DNA of 64,000 nucleotides from Clostridia bacterium (GTDB lineage: Bacteria > Bacillota > Clostridia > UMGS1883 > UMGS1540). This document shows, piece by piece, positions 57,427 to 58,647 of this stretch. A program made the position numbers and the translations under genes. Within the stretch, counting starts at the first letter, position 1. The number at the start of each line of letters is the position of its first letter. Location of the stretch: contig JAFZQX010000046.1 in assembly GCA_017620205.1 (NCBI GenBank), positions 1-64,000 of the forward strand. The letters are read 5' to 3'. The notes beneath the pieces were generated by a model. The model made no database searches. It was not told the DNA's origin and saw nothing but the letters and a program-made list of their open reading frames with translations.

Positions 57427-57527
57427 AAAGATAATCAATACATTTTACACAAAAGAATATAAAAAACCATATGCAGAGCGAGAGAAGCAGCGCTTGGATA
57501 AGATACGGCAAATAATGCAAATAAGCG

Positions 57528-57556
57528 TTGCAAATCAAAGAAATGAATGATATAAT
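57528..57556 (+). promoter_or_regulatory. Promoter of the DUF3990-DUF3791 cassette
   Basis: TTGCAA (57528-57533), 17 bases, TATAAT (57551-57556) preceded by TGA (extended -10). Placed 35 bases before ATG 57591, with AGGGG at 57576-57580 as ribosome site. It gives the cassette a transcription unit separate from the giant gene. Confidence 0.75.
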
Positions 57557-57590
57557 AAGCGTGAAGGTATATGTTAGGGGTTGAGTATAA

Positions 57591-58082
57591 ATGATACTTT
57601 ATCATGGAAGCAATTATGTTGTTGAAAACCCGAAGCTCATTCCGCAGAACAGATTTCTTGATTTTGGATATGGCTTTTATACAACCACAAATAAAGCGCA
57701 GGCAATAAGCTTTGCCGAAAAGGTGTATAAAAGAAAAAAAGTGGGTTCAAAACAGGTTAGCATATATGTTGTTGATGAGGATAAACTATTTTCGGAGTGT
57801 TCTGTTCTGAAATTTGATTCTCCGAGTGAAGCATGGCTTGATTTTGTTTCTGATAATCGTTCAGGCAACTATGACGGCGAGAATTTTGATGTTATTTACG
57901 GTCCCGTTGCCAATGATGATGTTTATGCAACATTTACCCTGTATCAGTCGGGATATTTATCAAAGGAACAAACGCTTGATGCCTTAAAAATCAAGAAACT
58001 GTATAACCAAATGGTTTTTGCAACAGAAAAAGCGTTGTCATTTTTGAAATATTCAGGGACGGTTCCGGAGGATGAGTTTTAA
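57591..58082 (+). CDS. DUF3990 protein, ADP-ribosyltransferase-like
   Basis: 163 residues. N-terminal ILYHGSN (His5) and [11 protein letters not shown] (Tyr30) are the DUF3990 hallmarks and resemble the H and Y elements of H-Y-E ADP-ribosyltransferases. [14 protein letters not shown] and [14 protein letters not shown] complete the family pattern; the third catalytic residue is not certain. Its TAA overlaps the ATG of the next gene. With the two DUF3791 genes it forms a compact cassette resembling a toxin-antitoxin unit; that role is inference. Confidence 0.85.
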
Positions 58083-58321
58083 TGGAAAAAGATAAATTTG
58101 AATCTATGCTTATACTTATAGTACCTAATGTTGTTAAACTTATTGTTGAGAACTATGCTGTCAGCGAAATTGAGGCATCTGATATGTTTTATAATTCAGC
58201 GGTCTATGAGAAATTGGAGCAAGAAGACACAAAGCTATGGCATTTAAGTCCGTTGACACTTTATAATATGTTTGACGAAGAACAGAAATTGGGTAGCTTT
58301 GTTTTTCCGGAGGAGGTATGA
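58082..58321 (+). CDS. DUF3791-like protein 1
   Basis: 79 residues, starting in a TAATG overlap with DUF3990. Small helical protein (MLILIVPNVVKLIVENYAVS, ASDMFYNSAVYEKLEQEDT, WHLSPLTLYNMFDEE). The pattern of a short helical repressor-sized partner next to DUF3990 fits the DUF3791 family. Possible antitoxin or adaptor; not proven. Confidence 0.72.
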   Translation: MEKDKFESMLILIVPNVVKLIVENYAVSEIEASDMFYNSAVYEKLEQEDTKLWHLSPLTLYNMFDEEQKLGSFVFPEEV

Positions 58322-58324
58322 CAT

Positions 58325-58531
58325 ATGAGTAAAGAAGGCAATTTCTTGATATTTTGTATTGAACAGTATAAATCGGCAAAGAATTTAACCGGAAAGCAGG
58401 TTATAGAGCTGTTCCGACGCTATGGGATTTCAGAATACATCGTAAGTTGCTTTGAAGCGCTTCATACAACAGGAACAAACTATATCATTCAAGATATTGA
58501 TTTATTTATTCAGGCACATCAGACCGTATAA
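58325..58531 (+). CDS. DUF3791-like protein 2
   Basis: 68 residues, GGAGG upstream and only 3 bases after the previous stop. LIFCIEQYKSAKNLTGKQVI, ELFRRYGISEYIVSCFEALH and DIDLFIQAH are typical of DUF3791. It is diverged from its neighbour, so the cassette carries two different partners. The predicted transcription unit ends at the terminator 58583-58619. Confidence 0.8.
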   Translation: MSKEGNFLIFCIEQYKSAKNLTGKQVIELFRRYGISEYIVSCFEALHTTGTNYIIQDIDLFIQAHQTV

Positions 58532-58582
58532 TAACGAATAAGCTTATTATAAAATGTATAGGAAATTAAAAAGGCTTAAAAG

Positions 58583-58619
58583 AGTCTGTTGATTCAATAC
58601 GAATCGGCAGACTTTTTTT
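58583..58619 (+). terminator. Terminator of the DUF3990 cassette
   Basis: AGTCTG/CAGACT outer stem and GATTC/GAATC inner stem around AATAC, followed by seven T. Confidence 0.88.
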
Positions 58620-58647
58620 GTGCCCAAAATCAGAAAGGGTGATATTT

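What the first reader, a model, noticed from the sequence alone, without database searches (positions are those of the whole stretch)
57528..58619. DUF3990 ADP-ribosyltransferase-like gene with two DUF3791-like partners as a self-contained cassette
The three genes overlap or nearly touch (TAATG at 58082, 3-base gap at 58322). They have their own consensus promoter and terminator and sit as cargo between the helicase and mob modules. His5/Tyr30 motifs suggest ADP-ribosyl transfer. The organisation resembles toxin-antitoxin or element-maintenance systems, but with two distinct small partners. This is a candidate for an undescribed addiction or defence module.
Basis: partly seen in the sequence, partly recalled or inferred. 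Interest (0 to 1): 0.72.

Follow-up and report, generated by a model that had tools for sequence, protein, structure and literature searches.

The report
ADP-ribosylating toxin with split antitoxin
Three small overlapping genes carried by a mobile element look like a self-poisoning toxin and an antidote split into two related proteins; the trio is already in a catalogue of candidate anti-phage systems, but its parts and logic had not been worked out in anything I could find.

Summary
In detail: three adjacent genes (A 57591-58082, B 58082-58321, C 58325-58531) lie between a promoter and a strong terminator, as a roughly 1.2-kb insertion between the helicase and DUF3848 genes of a mobile element. 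Nine related elements lack the insertion; another carries a Phd-Doc toxin-antitoxin pair there.

A is DUF3990. Its predicted fold is ADP-ribosyltransferase (closest: RES-Xre and ParT toxins), with an invariant His5-Tyr30-Gln140 triad. C is DUF3791. B matches no Pfam family but is a distant homologue of C. B and C match, in order, the two halves of one HTH-bearing partner found beside longer DUF3990 proteins, including one elsewhere in this genome, and they are fused in Bacteroides and Fibrobacter. The best reading is a toxin with a two-lobed antitoxin, split into two genes here.

Broken cassettes lose A while keeping B and C, and A has the weakest ribosome-binding site.

It is not undescribed: PADLOC-DB lists this trio as candidate PDC-M13, and relatives as PDC-M10 and PDC-M42. 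Linking them as one family with a modular antitoxin is the added value. Toxicity, neutralisation, target, and addiction versus phage defence remain untested.

The parts
57427..58647 (+). inserted cargo segment between the helicase gene (stop 57426) and the DUF3848 gene (ATG 58648)
   Evidence: nine related elements have these two genes -77 to +13 bp apart; one (L158) has Phd-Doc in the same slot
57528..57556 (+). sigma-70-type promoter TTGCAA-17-TATAAT with extended -10
   Evidence: 10 of 12 matches; number of sites in the region not above shuffles
57591..58082 (+). A: DUF3990 toxin, 163 aa, H-Y-Q ADP-ribosyltransferase fold (His5, Tyr30, Gln140)
   Evidence: Pfam PF13151 1.4e-47; AlphaFold2 pLDDT 91.6; PDB matches RES-Xre, ParT; triad invariant in 113 sequences
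58082..58321 (+). B: antitoxin lobe 1, 79 aa, helical, start overlaps A's stop
   Evidence: PADLOC PDC-M13B/M13C; homologous to C and to the N-terminal part of the HTH-bearing partner
58325..58531 (+). C: antitoxin lobe 2, DUF3791, 68 aa, strong ribosome-binding site GAGGAGGT at 58310-58317
   Evidence: Pfam PF12668 5e-23; PADLOC PDC-M13C 6.9e-36; Shine-Dalgarno energy -13.4 against -5.9 for A
58578..58618 (+). intrinsic terminator, 18-pair hairpin with T tract
   Evidence: -27.5 kcal/mol, z -7.1

Best explanation
The cassette is a toxin-antitoxin module carried as cargo by an integrative conjugative or mobilisable element. A is an intracellular NAD+-dependent toxin of the H-Y-[EDQ] class of ADP-ribosyltransferases. 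B and C are two homologous four-helix units that together make one antitoxin, encoded as two genes here and as one protein elsewhere. In the uninfected cell B and C, translated from stronger ribosome-binding sites, bind A and block it. Loss of the element, or a disturbance such as phage infection that depletes or diverts B or C, frees A, which uses NAD+ to ADP-ribosylate a cellular target (or, less likely, destroys NAD+) and stops growth. This stabilises the element and may abort phage infection. Shown here: fold, invariant active-site residues, operon structure, homology of B and C, fusion, co-occurrence, asymmetric decay. Inferred: toxicity, neutralisation by binding, trigger, target.
For: Fold and active site: confident model whose leading matches are ART-superfamily proteins, led by the toxins of RES-Xre and ParST toxin-antitoxin systems; His5, Tyr30, Trp82, Arg90 in 113/113 and Gln140 in 112/112; H-Y-[EDQ] is a recognised ART clade (PMC9503650). 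Linkage: in 249 genomes 11 have DUF3990, 10 have DUF3791, 9 have both (P = 6e-14); about 100 loci carry intact A with B and C. One antitoxin in two pieces: B and C homologous (profile score 28.0, best of 60 shuffled or reversed controls 15.8), B matches residues 16-71 and C residues 88-148 of the partner that ends in an HTH domain (28.8 against 16.2; 38.1 against 17.6); single-ORF B-C fusions in L119, L123, L129, L131 and apparently on pBF9343; two similar four-helix repeats in the fusion model. Asymmetry: six distinct cassettes have A broken or missing with B and C intact, including a transposase-like gene inside A in a one-contig genome; no clear case away from a contig end of intact A without a partner. 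Expression: A has weaker Shine-Dalgarno than B in 44/59 and C in 48/59 loci. Setting: a Phd-Doc pair fills the same slot in a sister element; on conjugative pBF9343 the genes sit beside a zeta toxin gene. Purifying selection on all three.
Against: No toxicity or binding data. B and C have no DNA-binding domain, so the autoregulation typical of type II antitoxins is missing in this form. The third catalytic position is Gln rather than Glu, so the reaction (transfer or NAD+ hydrolysis) is open. Six against none decay events is modest (P about 0.016 under equal odds), and some broken copies may be assembly errors in MAGs; L040 has an intact A with a small downstream ORF that matches neither B nor C. 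The B match to the HTH partner is the weakest link (E about 1e-4).
Confidence: 0.75

Rival explanations
1. A dedicated anti-phage abortive-infection system: one small protein inhibits A, the other is the infection sensor (as the chaperone is in CmdTAC), and addiction is incidental.
For: PADLOC lists the trio as phage-defence candidate PDC-M13; a three-gene ART defence system with a sensor exists (CmdTAC, PMC11618068); some nearest neighbours are restriction, Cas1 and MADS-like genes.
Against: B and C are homologous and sometimes fused, which favours one antitoxin over inhibitor plus sensor; the nearest large neighbours are mostly unrelated families; presence on conjugative plasmids and in a slot that also holds Phd-Doc fits element maintenance.
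Confidence: 0.3
2. A is a NAD+ glycohydrolase toxin that depletes NAD+ rather than modifying a target, like the RES toxin NatT.
For: Closest Foldseek matches are RES-Xre toxins; NatT of a RES system is reported to deplete NAD and NADP (PMC11535050).
Against: The active-site signature is H-Y-Q, not that of RES, and the ParT and exotoxin folds that match equally well are transferases.
Confidence: 0.3
3. A non-toxic regulatory ADP-ribosylation unit of the mobile element: A modifies an element or host protein and B and C are its subunits or targets.
For: No toxicity data exist; the cassette sits inside a conjugation region.
Against: The window's transfer genes do not accompany the cassette in the 80 other loci apart from one relaxase match; nine related elements lack it; decay hits A, not B or C.
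Confidence: 0.1

Closest known systems
PDC-M13 (PADLOC-DB phage-defence candidate)
   Same: all three proteins hit its models over full length (3.6e-71, 6.8e-30, 6.9e-36); three adjacent genes
   Different: PADLOC gives no mechanism; its A, B, C labels mix DUF3990 and small proteins, which fits labelling by position and the different gene orders seen here
PDC-M42 and PDC-M10 (PADLOC-DB candidates)
   Same: same DUF3990 toxin fold; partner contains B-like and (M42) C-like parts in one protein
   Different: two genes; M42-like toxins are longer (about 222 aa) and many partners end in an Xre-type HTH
RES-Xre (ParST, NatRT, Xre-RES) toxin-antitoxin systems
   Same: ART-fold toxin encoded beside its antitoxin; best structural matches
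   Different: different active-site signature, no sequence match to RES, no Xre protein in this cassette
CmdTAC
   Same: three genes with an ART toxin
   Different: third component is a SecB-like chaperone; B and C are homologous helical units with no SecB match
Rhs5-CT DUF3990 of Serratia
   Same: DUF3990 domain used as the C-terminal domain of a secreted Rhs protein (PMC4524185)
   Different: delivered polymorphic toxin with its own immunity gene; A here has no delivery domain

Membership tests
PDC-M13 | three adjacent genes matching the PDC-M13A, B and C models | tested here: met
PDC-M13 | protection against phage | not testable with these tools
   needs an infection assay
DUF3990 (PF13151) | score above gathering cut-off | tested here: met
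   161.7 against 32.2 bits
DUF3791 (PF12668) | C above gathering cut-off | tested here: met
   81.2 against 25 bits
DUF3791 (PF12668) | B above gathering cut-off | tested here: not met
   no Pfam match; remote homology only
ART superfamily, H-Y-[EDQ] clade | ART fold | tested here: met
   predicted model; top PDB matches ART toxins, Z up to 9.1
ART superfamily, H-Y-[EDQ] clade | conserved His, Tyr and Glu/Asp/Gln | tested here: met
   H5, Y30, Q140 invariant; clade definition from PMC9503650; that these three meet in the pocket was not measured on the model
ART superfamily, H-Y-[EDQ] clade | NAD+-dependent activity | not testable with these tools
   needs biochemistry
type II toxin-antitoxin | small adjacent genes in one apparent operon, toxin nearly always with partner | tested here: met
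type II toxin-antitoxin | DNA-binding, autoregulating antitoxin | tested here: not met
   no HTH or other DNA-binding family in A, B or C, no inverted repeat found by the promoter; present in the PDC-M42-like form
type II toxin-antitoxin | toxin stops growth and antitoxin protein neutralises it by binding | not testable with these tools
   needs expression tests
RES-Xre | RES domain and Xre antitoxin in the operon | tested here: not met
   no such Pfam matches in A, B or C
CmdTAC | SecB-like chaperone | tested here: not met
   no such Pfam match in B or C
DarTG | macrodomain antitoxin | tested here: not met
   no such Pfam match in B or C

The most novel reading that the evidence does not exclude
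PDC-M13, PDC-M10 and PDC-M42 are one toxin-antitoxin superfamily whose antitoxin is a duplicated helical unit that can be split, fused, reordered or given a DNA-binding domain. In the split form one lobe inhibits the toxin while the other is free to act as an infection sensor, giving a new way to trigger an ADP-ribosylating toxin with a target not yet known.
Probability: 0.25. Interest if true: 0.72.

Novelty: new member of a known kind. Interest (0 to 1): 0.5.

Why it matters
PDC-M13 is among the commonest defence candidates in rumen genomes (PMC13356809), yet I found no paper that explains how it works. Naming the toxin, its likely catalytic residues, and a split antitoxin turns a catalogue entry into a set of direct tests, and it merges candidates that were listed apart.

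Tried and rejected
No sequence relative of A in the PDB. No PDB fold match for the B-C fusion model: best Foldseek E 3.4 and best Z 5.2 over 62 residues; this does not show that the fold is new. Initial small alignments gave only weak B and C matches to the HTH partner; larger ones with controls resolved this. A search for PDC-M10B in 248 phylum genomes found only fragments in one genome, so the M10 layout was not studied. Nearest neighbours of 80 loci gave no dominant family, defence or mobile; only the nearest ORF of 150-700 aa on each side was looked at. Genes of the window's own element do not accompany the cassette elsewhere. H-Y-E was rejected as the signature: the residue at position 146 varies, and Gln140 is the invariant one. 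DarTG, CmdTAC and RES-Xre membership rejected. Five phage records hold a relative, unannotated, not followed.

Full report
What is there. Three ORFs on the + strand: A 57591-58082 (163 aa), B 58082-58321 (79 aa), C 58325-58531 (68 aa); A and B overlap by one base (TAATG), and B and C are separated by CAT. A TTGCAA-17-TATAAT promoter with extended -10 lies at 57528-57556, and an 18-pair terminator hairpin at 58578-58618. A is DUF3990 (1.4e-47), C is DUF3791 (5e-23), and B matches no Pfam family. All three match PADLOC-DB models of the candidate system PDC-M13.

Cargo in a mobile element. The cassette fills a 1,221-bp gap between a 3,034-aa helicase-type protein and a DUF3848 gene, followed by an HTH protein, a MobC/NikA-like protein and a MobA/VirD2-type relaxase. 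In nine relatives of the element the helicase and DUF3848 genes are -77 to +13 bp apart (L145, L146, L148, L149, L163, L164, L165, L166, L168). In L158 the same junction holds 754 bp with a Phd/YefM antitoxin and a Fic/Doc toxin, and in L162 it holds 956 bp with a 256-aa protein that I did not identify. The junction thus accepts different cargo, and in one sister that cargo is a known kind of toxin-antitoxin pair.

Recurrence. A single scan of genome contigs returned 80 loci from Bacillota, Spirochaetes, Bacteroidetes, Fibrobacter, Verrucomicrobia and others. Apart from three that run into a contig end, these carry B and C next to A, most as A-B-C. Counting all loci, the layouts are A-B-C 78, C-A-B 17, A plus an HTH-type partner 14, B-C-A 5 and fused BC-A 5 (this count includes some loci fetched twice). 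Layout follows the tree of A with 7 changes against 32.5 in shuffles (quick tree, many weak forks). In 249 genomes of the phylum, 11 have DUF3990, 10 have DUF3791 and 9 have both (hypergeometric P 6e-14). Only one of 80 loci shares any of the window's transfer genes, a relaxase match. Seventy-one plasmid records carry a relative, mainly Bacteroides, 28 of them typed conjugative.

The toxin. AlphaFold2 on 18 sequences gave pLDDT 91.6. Foldseek ranks the RES toxin of Xre-RES first (2e-4), then ParT-type toxins, PARP-1, diphtheria toxin and exotoxin A. VIA-align gives ParT Z 9.1 over 131 residues, and the 50 rows shown are overwhelmingly ADP-ribosyltransferases. Z near 9 alone is only middling; the uniform family of the matches is what counts. 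Among 113 distinct sequences His5, Gly6, Gly26, Tyr30, Trp82, Arg90, Gly104 and Ala107 never vary, and Gln140 is present in all 112 that cover it. H-Y-[EDQ] is a named clade of ARTs (PMC9503650), and DUF3990 is listed in Pfam's ART clan (PMC7955679). DUF3990 also occurs as the C-terminal domain of a Serratia Rhs protein (PMC4524185).

The partners. The profiles of B and C match each other (score 28.0; best of 60 reversed or shuffled controls 15.8). B matches residues 16-71, and C residues 88-148, of the partner of the longer DUF3990 proteins (28.8 against 16.2; 38.1 against 17.6). That partner ends in an Xre-type HTH. One copy of this two-gene form lies on contig C39 of the same genome. L119, L123, L129 and L131 have B and C as one protein, and the plasmid pBF9343 of B. 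fragilis carries a 149-aa DUF3791 protein directly before DUF3990, with a zeta toxin gene nearby. The model of the L119 fusion (pLDDT 92.7, pTM 0.62) shows the same four-helix pattern twice. So the two partners are best seen as two lobes of one antitoxin. In L105 an A-B fusion is read as one ORF next to C.

Which is toxin and which antitoxin. Six distinct cassettes keep B and C with A broken or gone: G009 (two stops), G065 (frame broken), G174 (a 536-aa transposase-like ORF inside A, one-contig genome), two in G264 (no A found), and L076. Intact A without B and C is seen only at contig ends or in L040, which has another small downstream ORF. Most loci were fetched by A, so the search favoured finding the opposite. 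Under equal odds six to none has P about 0.016. In the window the Shine-Dalgarno energies are -5.9 (A), -9.5 (B) and -13.4 (C); in 59 loci B beats A in 44 and C beats A in 48 (Wilcoxon 4e-4 and 2e-5; start codons were chosen by a like rule for all three). All three genes show low non-synonymous and near-saturated synonymous divergence.

Known or not. PDC-M13 is catalogued, and a 2026 survey counts 3,324 in rumen genomes (PMC13356809). PADLOC also lists PDC-M10 and PDC-M42, whose toxin models match the same proteins. In the held library no paper that I found describes a mechanism for DUF3990 with DUF3791. That library has no preprints. From memory, the PDC names come from a preprint on defence genes embedded in immune loci; I could not check whether PDC-M13 was tested there. 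What I add is the link between the candidates through a modular antitoxin (tested for M13 and the M42-like form; for M10 only the shared toxin models and one weak partner match), the triad, the decay asymmetry and the empty and Phd-Doc-filled sites.

What stays open. Toxicity, binding, the reaction, the target, the trigger, and whether the benefit is element maintenance, phage defence or both.

Noticed in passing
G000 contig C39:416-1700 (L002): A second DUF3990 cassette in the same genome: 222-aa toxin and a 211-aa HTH-bearing partner, PDC-M42-like.
   Followed up: yes
L158:1871-2499: A Phd/YefM-Doc toxin-antitoxin pair sits at the junction that holds the DUF3990 cassette in the window.
   Followed up: partly
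L090:4826-8108: Three different DUF3990 cassettes in tandem: a two-gene form, an A-B-C form and a C-A-B form.
   Followed up: no
L019:1947-3194: The DUF3791 lobe is read in one 415-aa ORF with a WYL/WCX regulator domain, a possible link to signal sensing; could be an ORF-calling or assembly effect.
   Followed up: no
L105:1871-2602: One ORF with toxin A fused to antitoxin lobe B, next to a separate C.
   Followed up: partly
L018 and L024 (G014 contig C23): A 2,580-aa open frame with two partial DUF3990 matches below the family cut-off.
   Followed up: no
L167:325-1212 and L150:440-1402: HipA-like-looking proteins upstream of DUF3848 in other elements; judged by eye only.
   Followed up: no
window:57520-57528 and 57554-57562: Direct repeat AATAAGCGT that touches the -35 and overlaps the end of the -10 of the cassette promoter.
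   Followed up: no
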